64,000 nucleotides of DNA from a bacterium (GTDB lineage Bacteria; Bdellovibrionota; UBA1018): NCBI GenBank assembly GCA_019751945.1, contig JAIEMT010000005.1, forward strand, positions 1 through 64,000, written 5' to 3'. The notes under the pieces were generated by a model. The model ran no database searches and was not told where the DNA came from. It saw only the letters and a list, made by a program, of their open reading frames with translations. Positions 25,854-35,124 of the stretch are shown here, piece by piece (within the stretch, counting starts at the first letter, position 1; the number at the start of each line of letters is the position of its first letter). The position numbers and the translations under genes are program-made.

Positions 25854-28011
25854 AGGACCCGCTCAGGGCCTTTCTACTCCGATTCAATTCCTAAAAGGCG
25901 TTGGGCCCAAACTCGGTTTCATTCTCGGAGGCCGAGGGATTGAAACAGTGGGCGACCTCCTGACCTTCTTTCCCCGCGCCTACGAAGATCGCACCAAAAT
26001 TCTGACTGTCAATCAGCTGAAGGATGGGCAGCTGGTCAATGTTTCCGTCGAAGTTCTCAAGCTCCGTAGAATTCCACTTCGCAAATCCGGACGAATGATG
26101 GTCGAAGTTCAATGCAAAGATTCCACCGGAGTTCTCAATCTGAAGTGGTTCCATTTTCCGCGAGGCATGGAAGCGCGCTTCTTACCTGGAACCGAAATCA
26201 TGGTGACGGGAACCGTGAAAGCGTTCATGGGTCGGCCCGAAATCCTGCACCCAGAAATCAGCTGGAGCCTTCAATCTCAAGAAACCAACACGGGCCGAGT
26301 CGTTCCTGTTTATACGGAAATCGAAGGGGTTCCGAGCCGAACTTTTCGGAAAATTCTTTGGGAAGCCCTGCAGCGAAACACTCAGCTCATCGCTGAGGAT
26401 CTCCCTCAGCAATACGTTCAGAAACACCAGCTCCCCACCAAGAAGGAATCGATTCACTCCATTCACTTCCCGGAAGAAGACGAAGTGGAAGCGCTGGTGG
26501 CATTTCGAAGCCCCGGACATCAACGTCTGATCTACGAAGAATTCTTCAAATTTGAATATCTGGTTTTGAGAAAGCGCCTCAATATGGAGCGACGATTCGC
26601 CACTCCGTTCGGAGAAAATGGCGGATCCGCTGAAGCCAAAGCCCTTGAAAAAGTAATCCCCTTTTCGCTCACGGGCGATCAGAAAAAGGCCATCGCAGAG
26701 ATTTTAAAAGATCTGGGCAGCGACCACCCGATGAATCGACTCATCCAAGGGGATGTCGGCTCCGGAAAAACACTGGTCGCCTTTTTAACAGCTGCCGCGG
26801 TCATTGCGGAAGGTGGCCAGGTCGCGCTGATGGTGCCTACTGAAATTCTGGCCGAACAACATTACAAGAATGCTGTGAAGTTCTTTGGTGGAAGACTTCC
26901 CGCTGCACTTCTCACCGGAAAAACTCCTGGGAGCGAACGTGCGGTGCTTCAGCAAAAGCTCGCCAATGGTCAGCCGATGATTCTAATTGGTACCCATGCG
27001 CTGATCGAAGAGCCGGTGCAGTTTAAGAATCTGGTCTACGTCATGATCGACGAGCAACATCGCTTCGGGGTAGAACAACGGCGCATTTTGAAAACCAAGG
27101 GCGCGCGGAAAGACGGGACACGAGTACTTCTTCCCCACACCCTCATTCTTACGGCCACTCCGATTCCTCGAACCCTGGCTCTCACTGCTTATGGGGACTT
27201 GCACATCTCGACCATCAAAGAGATGCCGCCCGGGCGAACTCCGGTGAAAACTCATGTTGTCACTCCACAGAAAATGGGACCGGCTTACAATAAAATTCGC
27301 CAAGAACTCAAAGCAGGACACCAGGCCTACTTCATCTATCCGCTGATTCATGAAAAAGAAGAGGACGAAGACGAGAAGCCTAAGGCTGTCCCTGCGGTGC
27401 AGTTAAAATCCGCGGTAGCAGAAGCAGAGAGATTACAAAAAGAAGTATTCCCGGAGTTTCGTGTGGGACTGCTTCACGGCCAGCTCCGACCCGACGAAAA
27501 AGCGGAAGTCATGGATCGCTTTAAACGGAAGGAGCTCGACATCCTGGTTTCTACCACTGTCATCGAAGTGGGTGTGGATGTCGCTAATGCTACTGTCATG
27601 GTGATTGAGCACGCGGAACGATTTGGCCTATCGCAATTACACCAGCTCCGAGGCCGCGTGGGTCGAAGCAATCTCGAGTCGTTCTGCTTTTTATTTACAA
27701 AGAGCCAGCTCTCGGAAATTTCTACTCAACGACTAGGGGTACTTGAACAAACCCACGACGGATTTAAAATCGCCGAGGCAGATTTAGAAATTCGAGGCCC
27801 CGGCGAATTTTTGGGTACCCGTCAATCAGGAGATCTTCCTTTTCGAATGGCAAACCTGGTACGCGACCGCGACTGGCTTTTAAAAGCTCGAGAAGATGCG
27901 GAAGAACTTTTAAATACGGATTCGAACCTGGAACGCCCCAGCAACCAGGAACTCCGCCGCTACTTTGAGCGCGAAGGAAAGATTCAATTCGAACGCTTGG
28001 GCACTAGTTAA
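25801..28011 (+). CDS. recG: ATP-dependent DNA helicase RecG (start uncertain)
   Basis: RecG remodels stalled replication forks and Holliday junctions. The wedge domain starts at FLKGVGPKLG and PRAYEDRTK. Helicase motifs include GDVGSGKT (Walker A), DEQHRFGVEQR (Walker B region), TATPIPRTLAL, and the C-terminal QLRGRVGRSN. Homology begins just after the greA stop codon, but no standard start exists there. The nearest is the ATG at 25801, behind GTGGTGG, which overlaps greA by 53 bases. That gives about 736 residues. Two in-frame ATGs further upstream are less likely. The stop overlaps the opposite-strand gene by eight bases. Confidence 0.95.
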   Translation: MLPRDPSNTTSSKSVTSKGPAQGLSTPIQFLKGVGPKLGFILGGRGIETVGDLLTFFPRAYEDRTKILTVNQLKDGQLVNVSVEVLKLRRIPLRKSGRMMVEVQCKDSTGVLNLKWFHFPRGMEARFLPGTEIMVTGTVKAFMGRPEILHPEISWSLQSQETNTGRVVPVYTEIEGVPSRTFRKILWEALQRNTQLIAEDLPQQYVQKHQLPTKKESIHSIHFPEEDEVEALVAFRSPGHQRLIYEEFFKFEYLVLRKRLNMERRFATPFGENGGSAEAKALEKVIPFSLTGDQKKAIAEILKDLGSDHPMNRLIQGDVGSGKTLVAFLTAAAVIAEGGQVALMVPTEILAEQHYKNAVKFFGGRLPAALLTGKTPGSERAVLQQKLANGQPMILIGTHALIEEPVQFKNLVYVMIDEQHRFGVEQRRILKTKGARKDGTRVLLPHTLILTATPIPRTLALTAYGDLHISTIKEMPPGRTPVKTHVVTPQKMGPAYNKIRQELKAGHQAYFIYPLIHEKEEDEDEKPKAVPAVQLKSAVAEAERLQKEVFPEFRVGLLHGQLRPDEKAEVMDRFKRKELDILVSTTVIEVGVDVANATVMVIEHAERFGLSQLHQLRGRVGRSNLESFCFLFTKSQLSEISTQRLGVLEQTHDGFKIAEADLEIRGPGEFLGTRQSGDLPFRMANLVRDRDWLLKAREDAEELLNTDSNLERPSNQELRRYFEREGKIQFERLGTS

Positions 28012-29140
28012 TCGGCTTCTGCTGATTCAGCCAAGCCTCCGTAAAACTCACGTGCTTAATCGCCGCACGACCTCCCCAGGTGTAAACGAGCTGAAACACT
28101 CCGTTCGAATCTCGGAAGATCGTAGGATAAGAGAATTCCCAACTCGATTCGGGACGCTTGTCGAAATCAAAAACATGCTCGAATTTTTTACCATTCGTAG
28201 AAATGGCCAAGCTCAAAATATTTCGACCTCCTAAAACCGAATTGTAAACCAGGAGAACTCGGCCATCCGAAGTCGAAGTAGCGGCCACACTAGAATTAGG
28301 ATTATCCAATTCCAGGTCCGGTTCCTTCGTCCAACCCGCAGGATCCAACATTTGGTGCACCTGAAAGTCGATGCTAGCCGATTCGATTTTGTGGGCGTCG
28401 TTACTCGACCGAAGGTACGCAAAAACACGCCCTCCCACTTCCACCAATGTCGGCTGCAAGTGGCCATTTCCAGGAATGTTCATGCACTTCACTTTGCGTA
28501 CTTCTTTTTTGGTCGCACTGATTAGATCAATCAGACAGGTGTATCCGGCGCGAGGAACCAAATCGTAATAAAGAGGAAGAAGAATTTGACCCCGATCAAT
28601 GCGAATCGGTAGCGCTCGCGGAAGACGTCCTCCCCAGCGGCGAGAAAACAGGGTGTCTAAAATCTTGCCGTGGCTCCAGGTTTTGCCCAAATCTTCAGAA
28701 ACCTTGAAAGCCAATTCCGAAAGAGTCCAACCCCCGAACATTCGAACGGCATAAAAAAGATAGAGCCGATCGTCGTCGTCTCGGTAAAGCACCGGATTTC
28801 CAATCGTGTCGTTGAACAGAAAATTTCCGTGGGTCGCTTCGTGTCGAGCTACAGCGACGGTCAAATCCTCGTTCCAGATTGGGCTGCCCAGGTTCTGAGT
28901 GCGACAATAAATCTGAGTGTCTGAAGCGCCCTCGTAAGCACCTGCGTACCAACAGGCCATCAACTTCTTGCCCGGAAGCTCTGCCAATGTGGCCGAGTGA
29001 TTGGCCGGATACGCTCCTGGCGGGGAGAGAAACTCCTCCGTGTAATCCGCCTGTGCAACTGCTGCCGTTTGAAATCCGAATGTCCCTAAAACCGCTAGGA
29101 ACGCCAAAACCCCCGATTGGATCTTTCCTGCCCCGTCCAT
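28004..29140 (-). CDS. Secreted sialidase-like (BNR/Asp-box fold) protein
   Basis: The 378-residue protein starts at the ATG at 29140, behind GGGGGTAGGG, with a signal peptide ending in VAQA. The body looks like a six-bladed beta-propeller of the exo-sialidase superfamily: repeated SxDxGKTW-like turns (SEDLGKTWSHG, SEFSY-type blades, SNDAHK) and the NHSATLAELPG segment. Enzymatic residues of true neuraminidases cannot be confirmed. The propeller may bind or cleave a carbohydrate outside the cell. It converges with recG. Confidence 0.75.
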   Translation of the reverse strand: MDGAGKIQSGVLAFLAVLGTFGFQTAAVAQADYTEEFLSPPGAYPANHSATLAELPGKKLMACWYAGAYEGASDTQIYCRTQNLGSPIWNEDLTVAVARHEATHGNFLFNDTIGNPVLYRDDDDRLYLFYAVRMFGGWTLSELAFKVSEDLGKTWSHGKILDTLFSRRWGGRLPRALPIRIDRGQILLPLYYDLVPRAGYTCLIDLISATKKEVRKVKCMNIPGNGHLQPTLVEVGGRVFAYLRSSNDAHKIESASIDFQVHQMLDPAGWTKEPDLELDNPNSSVAATSTSDGRVLLVYNSVLGGRNILSLAISTNGKKFEHVFDFDKRPESSWEFSYPTIFRDSNGVFQLVYTWGGRAAIKHVSFTEAWLNQQKPIN

Positions 29141-29198
29141 CCCTACCCCCGCGGCCCAACTACCGCTAAACCTGCGGAAACCCCAGTACAATTTAAAT

Positions 29199-29229: not shown

Positions 29230-29246
29230 AGGGGATGAGGAGTCCT

Positions 29247-29708
29247 ATGAACGAGGGTAAGAGTCCACGAATCGTGGGCAACTACATTCGCGAACGCAGA
29301 GAATCGGCAGGCCTGTCTCAAAAGGCCCTAGGGCAGCTTTTTAGCCCTCCGGTGACTACGCAGTTCATCTCGAACATCGAGCGAGGAGTGACTCCCTTGC
29401 CCCCGGTGCATATTTCAACACTCACAAAGGCTCTGAATATTCCTGAAAACGAGCTCCTGACGCTGATGGAGAAAGAGTATCTTGCCAAGCTCAGCGGGCG
29501 CCTTGATCCCCATTCCAACGGGGTTGCCCATGGAGCTCACGATCCGTCGGCCACCTGGCCCGACGTGAAAGTCGCTCCGGAAGATTTCTTACTGATCCAT
29601 AAACTCTACGACGCCTATAAAAACGCAGGCCCAGAGAAACGCCAGGAATTCCTAGCCCTCTGTGAATCCGTTTTGAATTTCTCAGCGAGTCGTCTAAACA
29701 AGGGCTGA
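29247..29708 (+). CDS. XRE-family helix-turn-helix regulator
   Basis: The 153-residue protein has a lambda-repressor-type DNA-binding domain at about residues 9-65: GNYIRERRESAGLSQKALGQLF, then QFISNIERG in the recognition helix. The C-terminal part (about 95-150) is helical and probably mediates dimers. The ATG at 29247 has GAGGAG five bases upstream and is preferred over an in-frame ATG four codons earlier. The stop overlaps the hydrolase start as TGATG, so the regulator likely controls that two-gene unit. Confidence 0.88.
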   Translation: MNEGKSPRIVGNYIRERRESAGLSQKALGQLFSPPVTTQFISNIERGVTPLPPVHISTLTKALNIPENELLTLMEKEYLAKLSGRLDPHSNGVAHGAHDPSATWPDVKVAPEDFLLIHKLYDAYKNAGPEKRQEFLALCESVLNFSASRLNKG

Positions 29709-30679
29709 TGTCCGAAAAGCTCGATAAATCCAACACACCTGCGAAGCCCAGACCCCATGGTGCGCGAAAGCTCAGCCTGCAGGAGCGGGAGTTGCTTCGC
29801 CACAACGAAAACCACCCCGCCGTGAGCCACGGGTATTTCAATAGCTACGATGGAACGCGTTTGTTCTACAGCATTGAGGGAACGGGCAAGCCTCTGATTT
29901 TCTGCTACGGCCTGGTTTGCTCGAGCCTGCACTGGACCTATCAGATTGAACACTTTCGTCGTTCCTATAAAACGGTGTGGTTCGATTACCGCGGACACCA
30001 AAATTCAGATGCCCCAAAAGACCTCAACACCCTTTCGGTCGACTGCATTTCGCGGGATTTAGAAACCCTGCTCGACGAGCTGAAAATCGAAGATGCCGTT
30101 TTTCTAGGTCACAGCATGGGCGTGAATGTGCTCTTAGACTTTTATAAACGCAATCCTAAACGCGTTCACGGAATGGTTCTCTGTAACGGAACGCCGAGAC
30201 GACCGCTGGAGTCGCTCTTTAAAAGCAACGCCACTGAGGCCGTCTTTAAGTTATTGACCCAGCTCGAAAACAAAGCTCCCACGCTGGTGAAAAAAATCTG
30301 GCCGATGCAGAAGAGAAATCCGGTACTGAAGTCTCTGATCCGACTGGGTGGCTTTAATCCGAATCTCACCCCACGCGAAGACATCGACCTTTACGTGGAC
30401 CAAGTGGCAGAAATGGATCCCAAAGTATTCGTTCACCTCATCAACAACTACAGCCACTATGATGCCACAGCGTGGCTCCATAAAATCAATGTGCCTTCCT
30501 TGATTCTCGGCGGTGAGCGCGATCGCGTGATTCCCAAAGAAGAGCAGGAGCTCATGGCTCAGCTCATTCCCTCGAGCCAGCTGGAAATTATCAAGCACGG
30601 CAGTCATTGCCCGCAGATGGACATGCCGGAATTCATAAATGGAAAAGTCGACACTTTTCTAAAAAGCCTGAAGTACTAA
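29708..30679 (+). CDS. Alpha/beta hydrolase
   Basis: The 323-residue protein has a Lys/Pro-rich N-terminal extension (about 40 residues) and then an alpha/beta hydrolase fold. The nucleophile elbow is GHSMGVN with Ser as nucleophile, the acid is probably Asp in GGERDRVIP, and the His is in KHGSHCPQMD. It probably hydrolyses an ester or lactone, but no substrate can be inferred. It is translationally coupled to the XRE regulator. There is no signal peptide. Confidence 0.88.
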   Translation: MSEKLDKSNTPAKPRPHGARKLSLQERELLRHNENHPAVSHGYFNSYDGTRLFYSIEGTGKPLIFCYGLVCSSLHWTYQIEHFRRSYKTVWFDYRGHQNSDAPKDLNTLSVDCISRDLETLLDELKIEDAVFLGHSMGVNVLLDFYKRNPKRVHGMVLCNGTPRRPLESLFKSNATEAVFKLLTQLENKAPTLVKKIWPMQKRNPVLKSLIRLGGFNPNLTPREDIDLYVDQVAEMDPKVFVHLINNYSHYDATAWLHKINVPSLILGGERDRVIPKEEQELMAQLIPSSQLEIIKHGSHCPQMDMPEFINGKVDTFLKSLKY

Positions 30680-30681
30680 AA

Positions 30682-32610
30682 TTATTCGTGAGACCCGGGA
30701 GTGATCACCCACTCCGTCCAGGGAAAACTCCAGTCGATCCAATTGGTGGCGTCGAGCTTTTGTTTCGCGAGCAGCCGACGAAACGGTTCGTGGCAGAGCT
30801 GCCCTTTGCAGTTTCCACTTCCAACATGGGTCATGGAATGAATGGCTTCGGGAGATCCAAGTTTTCCCAAGTGAATGCGATTGACGATCTGGTCGCGCGT
30901 CACACCATTACACGGGCAGATCACGTCACTCTTTCCATCGCCCTCATTGACTTCTGCAGCATCGCTCAGACGGATGGCCATTCCGCGATGAACTTGAGTT
31001 TGGCAGGCCTTCTTATCCGTTCCGTCGATTGAAATCGTGCAAAGCCCACAGCTTCCATCGGGGCAGAATAAAACATCTTCCGGGCGAGCGCGGCCGGTTT
31101 CAAAAAGTGCCAATGAAACGGGAACTTTGTCCCGAACCAAACGCTTCTCACCATTCAGAGTGATGTCGACTCGCTCCGCTGGAGCTTCCAGAATAGTAGT
31201 ATCCGCCTGACTTTGAGCCCGCGGATTTTTCACCTTCCGAATGGTGCGAGCATCCCAAATCAAATGCGTGGGCACCTCCACTTCAATGAGGTTTTCATTC
31301 ACGCCCATGGCGCGGCCGTTTCCCAAGCTCTCACCCATGCGATTCACTAACGTCACAAAACTTCCGACCTCGATCTTTCCTGGCCCTTGCCAAGAAAAAG
31401 TAACACGCGAATTGGGATGATTTTCTTTCTCGTGCATCATGACCGGAATTCCAGCGGGGCAAGCATTCAAACAAATCCCGCAAGCCGTGCAGTCCATTTC
31501 CTTCAGCTGACGATCTTTAATTTTAGAAAAGTCGATGGCATTTTCAGGGCAGGATTTTTCGCAGAGATTGCAAGGAATCTGTTCGAAGCATTCGATCGAA
31601 ACCATGTTCCGAACTTTTTGCTGCCCCTGCGGAACCAGTTTGAATGAACGCAAATCACGGCCATCTTGTTGAGACAACCACTTGCCTTCGTAAATCGGAA
31701 TGTACGGTTGCTCGCGATGATGAGCGTACTGCTTCAAGCGAGTACGAGCCCGACGCTGAATCTTATCGAGCTCCTCCCGCTTTCCTGAAACATCGGAAAC
31801 CAGGCTCTTCACTATTTTGAGAGCGAGGAGCCGGCCGCGTTCTTCTTCCACCACCCAACCTTCAAAGTCATCGATGCGAACATACGGAGCAGTCTGCTCC
31901 AACTCGAAGAGAAGCGAACCCGGGGGATTTTCGCGAATCCCGCTGCTCTGCGAATAGGGCCCCACCCCAATCACGCGCGAAACTTCGATCACGCGAATTC
32001 CCTTGGCATCCGCCAAGCGCAGTTCCCAAAGCAATGCTGACTTCTGTGAAAGCTTTACCGGCTTTGCTTCCACGAGTTTGCCACCATTCATTTCAAAGCG
32101 ACGTTTCTCAACTTCCCAACCCGAGATTCGTTTTGCGCCCCACTGACTCGCGCTCTCGATACAGAACACTTCGGGCACGCCCATGGTCAGAAATCGATTC
32201 CCAAGACGAAGCGCTTGATTGCCACTTCCGAGAATCGCAATCGAGTTATTCCAGGTCATTTGACCTTCTTGCAAAAGGCGCTCAACCGTTGAAAGCGGAA
32301 TCAGACCTTGAGAACGCGAACCCGGAAAAGGATCTGGCATGTGAGACGGTGCGACGACTCGAACAATCGCGCGAGCCTGCATGCGATGAACGCGATGCTG
32401 AACATCTTCCGCCAAAACCAATCCGCCCGTTCCCGAAAGGGGAATCACTCCGCGGGTGAAAAGCGTTTCACCGCCCAAGAGCCCCACCGATAAATTTAAA
32501 TCTGCGCAGATGGCAGAAAGCGCGCGAACTCCTGCCGAAGGCCAGTGTGAAATGCGAGGACCTGCCGCTACGAGCACATCGAATTTTCCATCTCGGACAG
32601 AGAAACTCAT
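30682..32610 (-). CDS. Multidomain iron-sulfur pyridine-nucleotide oxidoreductase-like protein
   Basis: The 642-residue protein combines four modules. Residues 1-290 resemble a disulfide-reductase-type flavoprotein, but the N-terminal GxGxxG is degenerate, while AILGSGNQALRLG is intact. A bis-[4Fe-4S] ferredoxin follows (CNLCEKSCPENAID and CTACGICLNACPAGIP). Next comes a plant-type [2Fe-2S] domain (CPDGSCGLC then a later Cys), and then a BFD-like [2Fe-2S] domain (CPCNG and GNCKGQLC). Similar module sets occur in amino-acid and opine dehydrogenase or hydrogen-cyanide synthase-like complexes. The start overlaps the FAD gene by four bases. The substrate is unknown. Confidence 0.8.
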   Translation of the reverse strand: MSFSVRDGKFDVLVAAGPRISHWPSAGVRALSAICADLNLSVGLLGGETLFTRGVIPLSGTGGLVLAEDVQHRVHRMQARAIVRVVAPSHMPDPFPGSRSQGLIPLSTVERLLQEGQMTWNNSIAILGSGNQALRLGNRFLTMGVPEVFCIESASQWGAKRISGWEVEKRRFEMNGGKLVEAKPVKLSQKSALLWELRLADAKGIRVIEVSRVIGVGPYSQSSGIRENPPGSLLFELEQTAPYVRIDDFEGWVVEEERGRLLALKIVKSLVSDVSGKREELDKIQRRARTRLKQYAHHREQPYIPIYEGKWLSQQDGRDLRSFKLVPQGQQKVRNMVSIECFEQIPCNLCEKSCPENAIDFSKIKDRQLKEMDCTACGICLNACPAGIPVMMHEKENHPNSRVTFSWQGPGKIEVGSFVTLVNRMGESLGNGRAMGVNENLIEVEVPTHLIWDARTIRKVKNPRAQSQADTTILEAPAERVDITLNGEKRLVRDKVPVSLALFETGRARPEDVLFCPDGSCGLCTISIDGTDKKACQTQVHRGMAIRLSDAAEVNEGDGKSDVICPCNGVTRDQIVNRIHLGKLGSPEAIHSMTHVGSGNCKGQLCHEPFRRLLAKQKLDATNWIDWSFPWTEWVITPGSHE

Positions 32611-33899
32611 GCGCCACCTTCTTTTTCAGGATGAGAAACCCCGAGCGCAGCACGAGTTCTACGAACCACATCGAAGATCGGGCCGTCGCAGCCCCCAACC
32701 ACCGTGGCCTTCACTCCTCGTCCGGGGATCTGCCAGTTAAAGCCTTTCAGATTGTCTTCGGGCCACTCAAAAACCATTCGTGGTCGCATCGAAGAAACCG
32801 AAAACTTTTCCCACTTCAAAAATTCGCGGCAAAGATCCCAAAGCGCAGTAAACGATCCAGACGATGCCCAAGAAGCTTCGGCACCTGAGAGACTCGAGCC
32901 CCCCATTCCCGGTTGAAGCACACGAGAATCAATGAGAGGCCCTGCCCGCAACAAAGAAAGCCGTTTGCCCGGATTGGTTTCACCCGGCGCCCCCTCTACT
33001 TCAGTCCAAGCGAGCAAATCATTCATTCCACCCACGCTAGTAGGATCAAGAATGGGTGCGGGCGCTGCCGAACCCACGGGAGTTAAGCTCCACTGCTCCC
33101 AGAGTCGAAGTCCCTGCGGCAGGATGGGCTTGGCTTCAGATTCCTTTGCTTGCGTCAGCACCCAGTTACTCAGCTGAGGTGTCCAGAAAACGTAAACCCC
33201 TTCATGAATATAGGCCGAGTGCGACGCGCCGAGAGCGTGGAAGCGCAGCCCCTTCGGAACAAAGTGAATCTGGGAAACCTCGTTGAAAATCTTTTCGCTC
33301 TCCAAACGCTCTTGAACAAACTCCAAATACCCACCGCGATACCGACTCACATCCACATCGCAAAGTTTCGGCAGAAGGAGTCCCTTCACCGAATCGGCCT
33401 CCGCACCAGAACCGATAAAACCTGGAAATTTTTTGAGCGCAGAAATTCCTTCGACAATCTGCGGATTCAATCCCGCATCCGAACCTTCGACATAGAGAGA
33501 CTCCAAAAATTCCCAGGCTCGAGCCTGCTCCATTCGCGAAGGGCCAGAAGCATTTTGCAACCAAAGACGTTGGCGAACCCGCGTGTAAGGCGCCATCGGA
33601 TCTCGAAATCCGGAAGATTTTTTATCCGAAGGCCATACTTCTACCGCGCCCGGAAAATTTGGACGCAATTCATTCAGAACCTGTTCCGGGGAATTTCTTT
33701 TCAACCGCTGAACGCTGATGAAATTCGAATTGAAGGGCCAGAGGGGATCCAAAGGGAGCTCGGAGTCTTCTCGAAAAAAGTCATAGTCAGGATTGAGTAA
33801 AAGAACCGACTTTCCTTCAGCGAGAAGGATGCTCGCCGCCACGAGCGGGGCCAAACCCGTTCCGATCAACGCCACGTCGCTATCGAGCGACATCCACAA
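32607..33899 (-). CDS. FAD-binding protein with degenerate oxidoreductase fold
   Basis: The 430-residue protein starts with a Rossmann dinucleotide fingerprint, VALIGTGLAPLVAASILLAEGKSVLLLN, and has a later Gly-rich segment (GMGGSSLSGAEASWASSG). The rest matches no family I know well. The overlap with both neighbours (20 bases with the upstream gene, four with the downstream one) suggests a fixed three-gene unit. It may be the catalytic flavin subunit served by the iron-sulfur protein. Which amine, opine or other donor it uses is not predictable. Confidence 0.7.
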   Translation of the reverse strand: MWMSLDSDVALIGTGLAPLVAASILLAEGKSVLLLNPDYDFFREDSELPLDPLWPFNSNFISVQRLKRNSPEQVLNELRPNFPGAVEVWPSDKKSSGFRDPMAPYTRVRQRLWLQNASGPSRMEQARAWEFLESLYVEGSDAGLNPQIVEGISALKKFPGFIGSGAEADSVKGLLLPKLCDVDVSRYRGGYLEFVQERLESEKIFNEVSQIHFVPKGLRFHALGASHSAYIHEGVYVFWTPQLSNWVLTQAKESEAKPILPQGLRLWEQWSLTPVGSAAPAPILDPTSVGGMNDLLAWTEVEGAPGETNPGKRLSLLRAGPLIDSRVLQPGMGGSSLSGAEASWASSGSFTALWDLCREFLKWEKFSVSSMRPRMVFEWPEDNLKGFNWQIPGRGVKATVVGGCDGPIFDVVRRTRAALGVSHPEKEGGA

Positions 33900-35124
33900 G
33901 CGCTCCCATGACTCGCCTTAAAGCTGTCTGCAACTGCGCCTTCTTGTATTCACTATGAGCGCTTCTGCCGCGCTCATTTTCTTCGAAACTCTTCTTATCC
34001 ACGATTTGAACTTCGTAGGGATAGAAGAAACGAATTTCCTTTTGGACGTATTTGAGATCGATGCGATCGATAATTTTTAACATGTGCTCTTCGACCGTGT
34101 GACTCTTAGCGTAGGACTTCAGATCCCGCACTTCTCTATAGGCTGGGTTTTCTAATTTAATCAGCTGACGAGCGGTGAACTGAATGGCGCGATAAAATTC
34201 GCTCGTATGAGGATTGTCGGGATTAGTCCACTGAGTCTGAGCCGCTTGCTCCAATTCCTTAATTAACTCTGCTTCAGACATTCCTTCTTTTTCAGCGCGG
34301 TCCATTAAACCGGAAAGCTGTTCCCGAAACGCATCCATATTGATCAACGTATTGCGGGAACGGCTGGGTTTAATATTCGGTGGCATCACAATCATTTTGT
34401 CTTTGAGATATTTCACCACTCTCAGCGCATCAAAGCGCGACTCGGTAACAAAGCGAATGCCGACGCGATCAAAAATGTCTTCAGCCACGTTTTCTGGCTT
34501 GTGTAAAAGTTTCAGCAACGTGGAGTCCCGAGATTTTTTAGGCTTCGTTTCAAACGCCACTAAGTTTACTCGAGACGGGTCGTCCGCCTTATCGCCTAAG
34601 AAAAGCCGTTCTTCTGAATCCCGATGAATGGCTTTGTAAAAACGATCGAAGATCTGTTTTTGAATATCCGCAAAATAAGAAGTTCGCAGGTCCTGATCAA
34701 TGTGCGCCAAAGTGTGCATCACTTTCAGAATGCTGCAGGCAAAAAGTTTTAAAAGATTTCCCGGAGTGTCGTTTCCTTGTCCCGGAAGTGAGGCATTGGC
34801 CATCAAAAGCAAATCGCGAATGTCCGTCAGTTCTAAAATTTTTCGGGGAACTTCTAACTTCAGTCCTTGAGGGTTTTCTGGCTGGAGAAAATACTTTCGA
34901 ATGAAGCTGATAGACTCTTGATAAAGACCAAACGCTTCGGCGCGTTCAATCGGATTCTCGACATCGTACCCGTAACTGCCGAAGAACCGGCCTGCCTCTT
35001 CAGACGAACTAATGCGAAAACCCACACCAGAATCAATGGACGATTTTCCGCTGATGATGATGTCCAAGACATCCCACCGAAGGTCATATTTTTTTCGCAA
35101 AGATTCAGGCGCTGCTGGACACAT
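33880..35124 (-). CDS. RelA/SpoT-like domain protein of the TIGR04552/TIGR04562 type
   Basis: The 414-residue protein has a segment DIFDRVGIRFVTESRFDALRVVKYLKDK that resembles the DxxGxR core of (p)ppGpp synthetases, with a charged helical C-terminus. I recall related proteins in Bdellovibrio and myxobacteria under TIGR04552/TIGR04562, but could not verify. Classic RelA GTP/ATP-binding motifs are incomplete, so it may be an inactive or divergent nucleotidyltransferase. It heads an operon with the flavin and iron-sulfur proteins. The ATG at 35124 has GGAG directly adjacent, an unusual spacing. Confidence 0.6.
   Translation of the reverse strand: MCPAAPESLRKKYDLRWDVLDIIISGKSSIDSGVGFRISSSEEAGRFFGSYGYDVENPIERAEAFGLYQESISFIRKYFLQPENPQGLKLEVPRKILELTDIRDLLLMANASLPGQGNDTPGNLLKLFACSILKVMHTLAHIDQDLRTSYFADIQKQIFDRFYKAIHRDSEERLFLGDKADDPSRVNLVAFETKPKKSRDSTLLKLLHKPENVAEDIFDRVGIRFVTESRFDALRVVKYLKDKMIVMPPNIKPSRSRNTLINMDAFREQLSGLMDRAEKEGMSEAELIKELEQAAQTQWTNPDNPHTSEFYRAIQFTARQLIKLENPAYREVRDLKSYAKSHTVEEHMLKIIDRIDLKYVQKEIRFFYPYEVQIVDKKSFEENERGRSAHSEYKKAQLQTALRRVMGALVDVAR

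What the first reader, a model, noticed from the sequence alone, without database searches (positions are those of the whole stretch)
30682..35124. Operon of a RelA-like protein, an FAD protein and a multi-cluster iron-sulfur protein
Three minus-strand genes overlap in series (20 and 4 bases). The last combines a partly degenerate flavoprotein, two [4Fe-4S], a [2Fe-2S] and a BFD-like [2Fe-2S] domain. The redox pair may act as a dehydrogenase complex. Coupling with a (p)ppGpp synthetase-like protein has no known explanation.
Basis: partly seen in the sequence, partly recalled or inferred. Interest (0 to 1): 0.6.

Follow-up and report, generated by a model that had tools for sequence, protein, structure and literature searches.

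The report
RelA-like enzyme plus four-cluster redox pair
A relative of the enzymes that make bacterial alarm nucleotides is encoded in one tightly coupled operon with a two-protein electron-transfer module, and this arrangement is kept across a whole order of Bdellovibrio-related bacteria, which makes a link between redox state and nucleotide signalling testable, though such a link is not shown.

Summary
The operon is real: rel (33880-35124), mid (32607-33893) and fes (30682-32610), minus strand. Homology places mid's start at an ATG giving a 14-base overlap with rel, not 20; mid/fes overlap by 4. rel belongs to an uncharacterised family (NCBIfam TIGR04562/TIGR04552, E 4e-116) with a RelA/SpoT synthetase fold. 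The residues that align with the catalytic Asp and Glu are invariant in 74 sequences. rel occurs across the phylum (317 of 368 genomes). mid and fes occur only in the window's order (fes in 52 of 55 genomes, mid in 51 of 55). Where rel and fes are both found they are adjacent in 48 of 49; the exception lies at contig ends. fes is a two-Rossmann flavoprotein fold carrying 2[4Fe-4S], a ferredoxin-type [2Fe-2S] and a BFD-type [2Fe-2S]. All 16 ligand cysteines are invariant in 33 sequences, while canonical flavin motifs are lost. mid is a divergent DAO-type protein with an altered Rossmann motif. Sequence, fold and gene order place the pair near the alpha-beta-gamma flavin dehydrogenases (opine, D-hydroxyproline, L-proline). 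mid and fes co-vary strongly; rel does not exceed control genes, and persists without the pair. Complex of mid and fes: likely. Coupling with rel: open.

The parts
33880..35124 (-). rel: TIGR04562/TIGR04552-family protein, 414 aa; unassigned N-terminal helical part (about 1-140) followed by a RelA/SpoT-type synthetase fold (about 142-396) with an extra loop (259-303)
   Evidence: NCBIfam E 4e-116; RelA_SpoT in 25 of 25 members; AF2 pLDDT 87.4; Foldseek 6ex0 E 2.3e-3, prob 1.00; VIA Z 11.3 to 5xnx and 11.0 to 1vj7
34453..34545 (-). rel first synthetase motif K194..K197-x-R199-x-S201..K205..K209..D219-x-x-G222-x-R224; D219 aligns with the catalytic Asp of RelA
   Evidence: invariant in 74 of 74; HMMER alignment to 1vj7
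33943..34014 (-). rel second synthetase motif E371-x-Q373..G386-x-x-x-H390-x-x-Y393-K394; E371 aligns with the catalytic Glu of RelA
   Evidence: invariant in 74 of 74; HMMER alignment and hhalign to the genome's own RSH, E 0.012
32607..33893 (-). mid: DAO-like flavoprotein-type protein, 428 aa from the ATG; Rossmann motif GTGxAP and invariant N34-P35 in place of the usual third Gly and acidic residue
   Evidence: DAO in 10 of 22 members; column counts in 36 sequences; only in the window's order, 51 of 368 genomes of the phylum
30682..32610 (-). fes: degenerate two-Rossmann flavoprotein fold fused to 2[4Fe-4S], [2Fe-2S] and BFD-type [2Fe-2S], 642 aa
   Evidence: AF2 pLDDT 88.6, pTM 0.88; Pfam; folds; 16 of 16 cluster Cys invariant in 33
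31561..32592 (-). fes residues 7-350: two-dinucleotide-binding-domain fold without canonical FAD motifs (its end overlaps the first [4Fe-4S] ligands)
   Evidence: VIA Z 17.2 to 9bov_A, 3.7 A over 230 residues; hhalign to an OdhA-like protein E 9.6e-7 over residues 68-146
31459..31590 (-). fes 2[4Fe-4S] dicluster domain, ligands C341 C347 C350 C354 C374 C377 C380 C384
   Evidence: Fer4_7 E 8e-8; invariant in 33 of 33
31003..31065 (-). fes ferredoxin-type [2Fe-2S] ligands C516-x4-C521-x2-C524-x11-C536 (OdhC-like domain about 474-550)
   Evidence: Fer2_4; hhalign to an OdhC-like protein E 2.5e-7
30793..30918 (-). fes BFD-type [2Fe-2S] ligands C565-x-C567-x33-C601-x4-C606
   Evidence: Fer2_BFD E 4e-9; invariant in 33 of 33
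33880..33893 (-). 14-base rel/mid overlap
   Evidence: rel and mid overlap in 35 of 35 loci, median 14 bases

Best explanation
rel is an RSH-fold pyrophospho- or nucleotidyltransferase of the Bdellovibrionota-wide TIGR04562 family. In the ancestor of the window's order a redox gene pair derived from the alpha-beta-gamma flavin dehydrogenases (mid = beta, fes = alpha with gamma and a dicluster ferredoxin fused in) came to lie directly downstream of rel and became translationally coupled to it. mid and fes form a stable heteromer that carries electrons through four Fe-S clusters. With the flavin sites eroded and the clusters fixed, it works as an electron conduit or redox module rather than as a classical FAD amino-acid dehydrogenase. 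Co-translation sets its amount to that of rel. Shown: gene order, overlap, folds of rel and fes, cluster ligands, eroded motifs, taxonomic distribution, mid-fes co-variation. Inferred: the complex, electron flow, loss of flavin, catalytic activity of rel. Not shown: any action of the pair on rel.
For: rel/fes adjacency in 48 of 49 genomes that have both; rel/mid overlap in 35 of 35; all 16 ligand Cys invariant in 33, against 42 invariant columns of 642; rel D219/E371 and the Lys/Arg set invariant in 74; RelA/SAS fold; two-Rossmann fold of fes; profile matches to an OdhA-like (9.6e-7) and OdhC-like protein (2.5e-7) whose genes stand in the order beta-gamma-alpha; mid-fes partial correlation of distances 0.93 with 9 loci and RecA as control, the highest pair, and 0.85 with 8 loci and RecG as control, again the highest.
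Against: mid's link to OdhB is weak (hhalign E 0.006). The GxGxxG and C-terminal GD losses in fes were mapped by motif position; hhalign covers only residues 68-153. Loss of motifs does not prove loss of flavin. The Fe-S clusters are inferred from cysteines. No structure of mid was made. In 3 of the 10 further co-variation sets mid-fes was not the top pair (rel-mid 0.74 against 0.71; mid-hydrolase 0.59 against 0.46; fes-RecG 0.72 against 0.66). Loss of the pair in the other lineages rather than gain in this order is not excluded.
Confidence: 0.55

Rival explanations
1. Operon hitch-hiking: the pair is an independent redox enzyme that settled behind a well-placed promoter and translation context; it has nothing to do with what rel makes.
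For: rel is kept without the pair in all other classes searched and in G012 of the same order, where rel is followed directly by the hydrolase. The rel-hydrolase junction holds different cargo in a sister order: an SxtJ-like gene and a carbamoyltransferase in L191. rel-mid and rel-fes co-variation does not exceed rel with the neighbouring hydrolase in the 8-locus run with RecG as the control, and is only a little above it in the others.
Against: The overlap and order persist although the flanks are rearranged: the hydrolase directly follows fes in only 12 of the 26 loci with a downstream neighbour. mid and fes were never found away from rel.
Confidence: 0.35
2. The pair is still an active flavin dehydrogenase for an amino acid, opine or cyclic amine, with non-canonical flavin sites; rel senses or acts on the same metabolic state.
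For: Architecture, order beta-gamma-alpha and [2Fe-2S] motif agree with opine/D-hydroxyproline dehydrogenases. An R-x-W motif like the FMN-site motif of beta subunits is present in most mid sequences (R109 in 30 of 36, W111 in 30 of 36). MerA, whose first Rossmann motif aligned there also lacks the third Gly, is mid's best PDB hit (E 0.0012).
Against: mid has P, S, A or T at the third Gly in 36 of 36 and N-P at the end of strand 2 in 36 of 36; fes lacks GxGxxG, the acidic residue and ATG. No transporter or catabolic gene stands next to the operon, unlike the opine-type loci.
Confidence: 0.2
3. The three proteins form a biosynthetic pathway: rel transfers a pyrophosphate or nucleotide to an acceptor which the redox pair reduces or oxidises, making a modified nucleotide or cofactor.
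For: Co-translation of all three; rel keeps catalytic residues but has an extra loop and a different N-terminal part from RSH enzymes.
Against: rel persists without the pair across the phylum, so its product must be useful without it.
Confidence: 0.08

Closest known systems
TIGR04552/TIGR04562 family (NCBIfam), function unknown
   Same: rel is a full-length member (E 4e-116)
   Different: the library gives only a family number; one paper of the library mentions TIGR04552, as a gene hit by a small indel in evolved Bdellovibrio NC01 (one passage of PMC9888234 read), none mentions TIGR04562
RelA/SpoT homologue (RSH) synthetases and small alarmone synthetases (RelP/RelQ; 6ex0, 5dec, 1vj7)
   Same: synthetase fold and aligned Asp, Glu, Tyr, Gln, His, Tyr-Lys residues
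   Different: Pfam score below cut-off in the window protein, extra loop 259-303, unassigned N-terminal helical part; the genome has its own canonical RSH of 735 aa
Flavin-containing opine dehydrogenase OdhABC, D-hydroxyproline dehydrogenase and dye-linked L-proline dehydrogenase (PMC4575208, abstract and passages read); HcnABC from recall
   Same: DAO-type beta followed by [2Fe-2S] gamma and two-Rossmann alpha with BFD, overlapping genes; C-X4-C-X2-C-X11-C; P-x-P-x-x-G-W motif
   Different: gamma and a 2[4Fe-4S] domain are fused into alpha; canonical FAD motifs lost; the genes stand behind a RelA-like gene
NfnABC/StnABC electron-bifurcating transhydrogenases (9bov, 8oh5)
   Same: best structural match of fes: two-Rossmann flavoprotein part, Z 17.2 and 16.1
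   Different: those chains have about 1,170 residues and a different overall architecture; bifurcation is not suggested here

Membership tests
TIGR04562/TIGR04552 | score above the curated cut-off | tested here: met
   388 bits against a cut-off of 140; 369 against 125
RSH synthetase superfamily | RelA/SpoT synthetase fold | tested here: met
   rows 1-45 of Foldseek are RelA/SAS-type chains, best E 2.3e-3, none under 1e-3; VIA Z 11.3 against 6.4 for the next fold, DNA polymerase beta
RSH synthetase superfamily | catalytic Asp and Glu and the basic residues around them | tested here: met
   D219, E371, K197, R199, K205 invariant in 74 of 74; pairing with RelA from HMMER alignment; the roles in RelA are recalled
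RSH synthetase superfamily | Pfam RelA_SpoT above gathering score | tested here: not met
   window protein 19.4 bits against 27; not found in its own genome at E 0.001 with PF04607
RSH synthetase superfamily | makes (p)ppGpp or a related alarmone | not testable with these tools
   needs an enzyme assay
alpha-beta-gamma flavin dehydrogenases (OdhABC, D-HypDH, L-ProDH) | gamma [2Fe-2S] motif C-X4-C-X2-C-X11~12-C | tested here: met
   C516-x4-C521-x2-C524-x11-C536 invariant in 33; motif from a PMC4575208 passage
alpha-beta-gamma flavin dehydrogenases (OdhABC, D-HypDH, L-ProDH) | alpha [2Fe-2S] motif C-X-C-X15~20-C-X4-C | tested here: inconclusive
   fes has C-X-C-X33-C-X4-C; the OdhA-like protein of L210 reads C-X-C-X32-C-X4-C, so the published spacing may count another Cys
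alpha-beta-gamma flavin dehydrogenases (OdhABC, D-HypDH, L-ProDH) | ADP-binding GxGxxG at the N terminus of alpha and of beta | tested here: not met
   mid GTGxAP-type in 28 of 36, third Gly absent in 36 of 36; fes AGPR...WPS
alpha-beta-gamma flavin dehydrogenases (OdhABC, D-HypDH, L-ProDH) | FAD, FMN and dye-linked dehydrogenase activity | not testable with these tools
   needs purified protein
DAO family (PF01266) for mid | Pfam DAO match | tested here: inconclusive
   10 of 22 members, best E 7e-7; no hit in the window protein
Fer2_BFD / Fer4_7 / Fer2_4 domains in fes | Pfam match above cut-off with all ligands | tested here: met
   37.1/26, 33/27, 24.7/22.8 bits; 16 ligands invariant

The most novel reading that the evidence does not exclude
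A redox-gated nucleotide-signal synthetase: the mid-fes complex, a flavin dehydrogenase that lost its flavin sites but kept four Fe-S clusters, reads the cell's electron supply and switches the RelA-like enzyme with which it is co-translated, so that an alarmone-type signal is made according to redox state.
Probability: 0.13. Interest if true: 0.85.

Novelty: new variant of a known kind. Interest (0 to 1): 0.5.

Why it matters
A single-copy RelA-like enzyme kept across most of a phylum known for predators (317 of 368 genomes) has no assigned function in the libraries searched. In one order it is locked to a redox module of four invariant clusters with eroded flavin sites. If the two parts talk to each other this would be a direct route from electron supply to nucleotide signalling, with a natural control: sister classes that have the enzyme without the module.

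Tried and rejected
The long rel branch in the one near-complete genome of the order that lacks the pair (L128/G012, branch 1.45 against a median of 0.34) was first taken as a sign of released constraint. AlaS (2.11 against 0.24), RecA (0.48 against 0.23) and PgpA (1.30 against 0.48) of the same contig are also long, so the genome is fast-evolving as a whole; rejected as evidence for coupling.

Co-variation of distances: only 7 to 18 loci a run; rel with the pair did not clearly stand out from control genes. Inconclusive. For the neighbourhood and flank counts five of the 36 loci of the group (L104, L106, L114, L123, L126) were dropped because the simple gene caller missed rel there; one search shows the three genes in all five.

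RNA families, tRNAs: nothing in the window. rel in plasmids: no match. fes in viral contigs: none. fes in plasmids: three weak matches, two of them opine-type [2Fe-2S] genes. PDB sequence searches with rel (best RelA 1vj7, E 0.13), with mid (only the first Rossmann strands) and with the N-terminal part of fes (best 3ab1, E 0.008) gave no family by sequence alone. hhalign of rel against the genome's own RSH aligned only 31 residues. No L-proline dehydrogenase structure was among the 50 rows shown of the fold searches for fes, which excludes nothing. Five genomes outside the order with fes-profile matches align only over the ferredoxin region (profile positions 328-483) of open frames of 889-1190 aa; not counted as fes. 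Distribution outside the phylum was not tested beyond 14 control genomes (rel, none), plasmids and viral contigs. Paper searches for RelA-like enzymes in Bdellovibrio or with redox partners gave nothing relevant in the listings; PMC3153485, of which passages were searched, names no Bdellovibrio group.
Full report
What is there. On the minus strand lie rel (33880-35124, 414 aa), mid (start best placed at the ATG at 33893, end 32607) and fes (30682-32610, 642 aa). Loci with the same three genes carry titles such as Bdellovibrionales, Bacteriovoracaceae and Oligoflexia, so the window very probably belongs to Bdellovibrionota.

rel. NCBIfam puts rel in TIGR04562/TIGR04552 (E 4e-116 and 3e-110). 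Pfam RelA_SpoT matches 25 of 25 members (best 7e-8), although the window's own score is below cut-off. The predicted structure (pLDDT 87.4, pTM 0.76) is matched in its part 142-396 by RelA, Rel and small alarmone synthetases: Foldseek rows 1-45, best E 2.3e-3 with probability 1.00 and none under 0.001; VIA Z 11.3 with 5xnx (3.5 A over 133 residues) and 11.0 with 1vj7, against 6.4 for the first unrelated fold. Residues aligned with the RelA catalytic Asp (D219) and Glu (E371), and K194, K197, R199, S201, K205, K209, R224, R255, N258, Q373, H390, Y393 and K394, are invariant in 74 of 74 sequences from the window's order, its class and Bacteriovoracia (residue roles in RelA are from recall). It looks like an active enzyme, with unknown acceptor. 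The genome has a canonical RSH as well.

fes. Its model (pLDDT 88.6, pTM 0.88) shows a two-Rossmann flavoprotein fold over about residues 5-350 (VIA Z 17.2 with NfnABC 9bov, about 15 with thioredoxin reductases), followed by 2[4Fe-4S], a ferredoxin-type [2Fe-2S] and a BFD-type [2Fe-2S] domain. The protein has 18 cysteines; the 16 that would bind the clusters are invariant in 33 of 33 sequences, the other two are not; 42 of 642 columns are invariant in all. In the flavin domain the motifs that an OdhA-like protein still shows (GAGPAG, FDEN, ATGA, AGDG) are replaced. hhalign supports the pairing of residues 68-153, which hold the PxPxxGW and second Rossmann motifs (E 9.6e-7 and 2.8e-6); the loss of the first and last motif was read by position.

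mid. DAO matches 10 of 22 members. The first Rossmann motif is GTGxAP: the third Gly is P, S, A or T in 36 of 36, and strand 2 ends in Asn-Pro in 36 of 36. mid resembles an OdhB-like protein only weakly (hhalign E 0.006). It has an R-x-W stretch like the FMN-site motif reported for beta subunits (R109 and W111 each in 30 of 36; motif from a passage of PMC4575208).

Relation to known complexes. In the opine-type locus L210 the genes stand as beta, gamma, alpha with overlaps (domains), as in the published OdhB-C-A. In the window beta (mid) is followed by a fusion of alpha, a dicluster ferredoxin, gamma and the BFD part (fes). The pair is thus best described as derived from that group, without the ADP-binding motifs that define it.

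Distribution. rel: 317 of 368 genomes of the phylum, 218 of 234 of good quality; 55 of 58 of the class. fes: 57 of 368 at E 1e-20, of which 52 are in the window's order (55 genomes) and 5 match only in the ferredoxin region. mid: 51 of 368 at E 1e-10, all in the order. Both rel and fes: 49 genomes, in 48 of which fes lies downstream of rel on the same strand within 3 kb; in the other (G008) both are cut by contig ends. The 3 genomes with fes and no rel have fes at a contig end. Of the 3 order genomes with rel and no fes, G013 and G022 are fragmentary and G022 has mid at a contig end; G012 is 97% complete and lacks both, with rel followed directly by the hydrolase.

Neighbourhood. In Bacteriovoracia the order is AlaS, RecA, PgpA, rel, hydrolase, RecG, without mid and fes; in the window's order mid and fes stand between rel and the hydrolase (PgpA, hydrolase and others; AlaS, RecA and RecG named from their translations by recall). 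The pair was therefore inserted there, or lost elsewhere. The f2 lineage, the earliest branch of the order in the rel tree with weak support (80/61 and 82/49), has it in the same place (L122). The flanks are less stable than the three genes: the hydrolase directly follows fes in 12 of 26 loci that have a downstream gene. In a sister order the same junction holds an SxtJ-like gene and a carbamoyltransferase (L191), so this is a place where cargo settles.

Coupling. After control for RecA or RecG distances, mid-fes has the highest correlation (0.93 with 9 loci, 0.85 with 8); in further sets (7 to 18 loci) it ranges from 0.46 to 0.96 and is the top pair in 7 of 10. rel with mid and with fes gives 0.75 and 0.73 under RecA, where rel with the neighbouring hydrolase gives 0.65, and about zero under RecG. 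This supports mid and fes as a complex and leaves rel open.

Verdict. A conserved, translationally coupled operon of an uncharacterised RSH-fold enzyme and a derived four-cluster redox pair. Most likely the pair is an electron-transfer complex; a redox switch on rel is possible and testable, not supported beyond gene order and co-translation.

Noticed in passing
L191:6803-9094 and L190:271-1710: The junction between rel and the alpha/beta-hydrolase holds other cargo in sister orders: an SxtJ-like gene plus a carbamoyltransferase (L191); a family 5 solute-binding protein follows rel in L190 before the contig ends.
   Followed up: partly
L128:6947-8441 (G012): The only near-complete genome of the order without mid and fes; rel is kept, the genome is small (2.0 Mb) and fast-evolving (AlaS branch 2.11 against a median of 0.24).
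   Followed up: yes
window 28004-29191: BNR-repeat (sialidase-like) protein, PF13088 E 2.5e-40, that overlaps the end of RecG on the opposite strand; no relative of it among the neighbourhoods clustered.
   Followed up: no
window 29235-30679: HTH regulator and alpha/beta hydrolase form a small operon convergent with fes (2 bases between the two genes).
   Followed up: no
L099:3592-5450: fes is split into two ORFs in this MAG, with an unrelated ORF of 272 aa on the other strand between mid and fes: a broken copy, an insertion or an assembly error.
   Followed up: no
Bdellovibrio sp. NC01, DOE51_RS08710: PMC9888234 (one passage read) lists a small indel in a TIGR04552 family protein gene in evolved population B, so the gene may be dispensable in co-culture.
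   Followed up: no
L207, L208, L195, L197, L203, L204 (other classes): In other classes rel often follows a conserved unknown gene of about 209-264 aa and precedes an acyltransferase and 3-hydroxyacyl-CoA dehydrogenase genes, a different context from the window's.
   Followed up: partly
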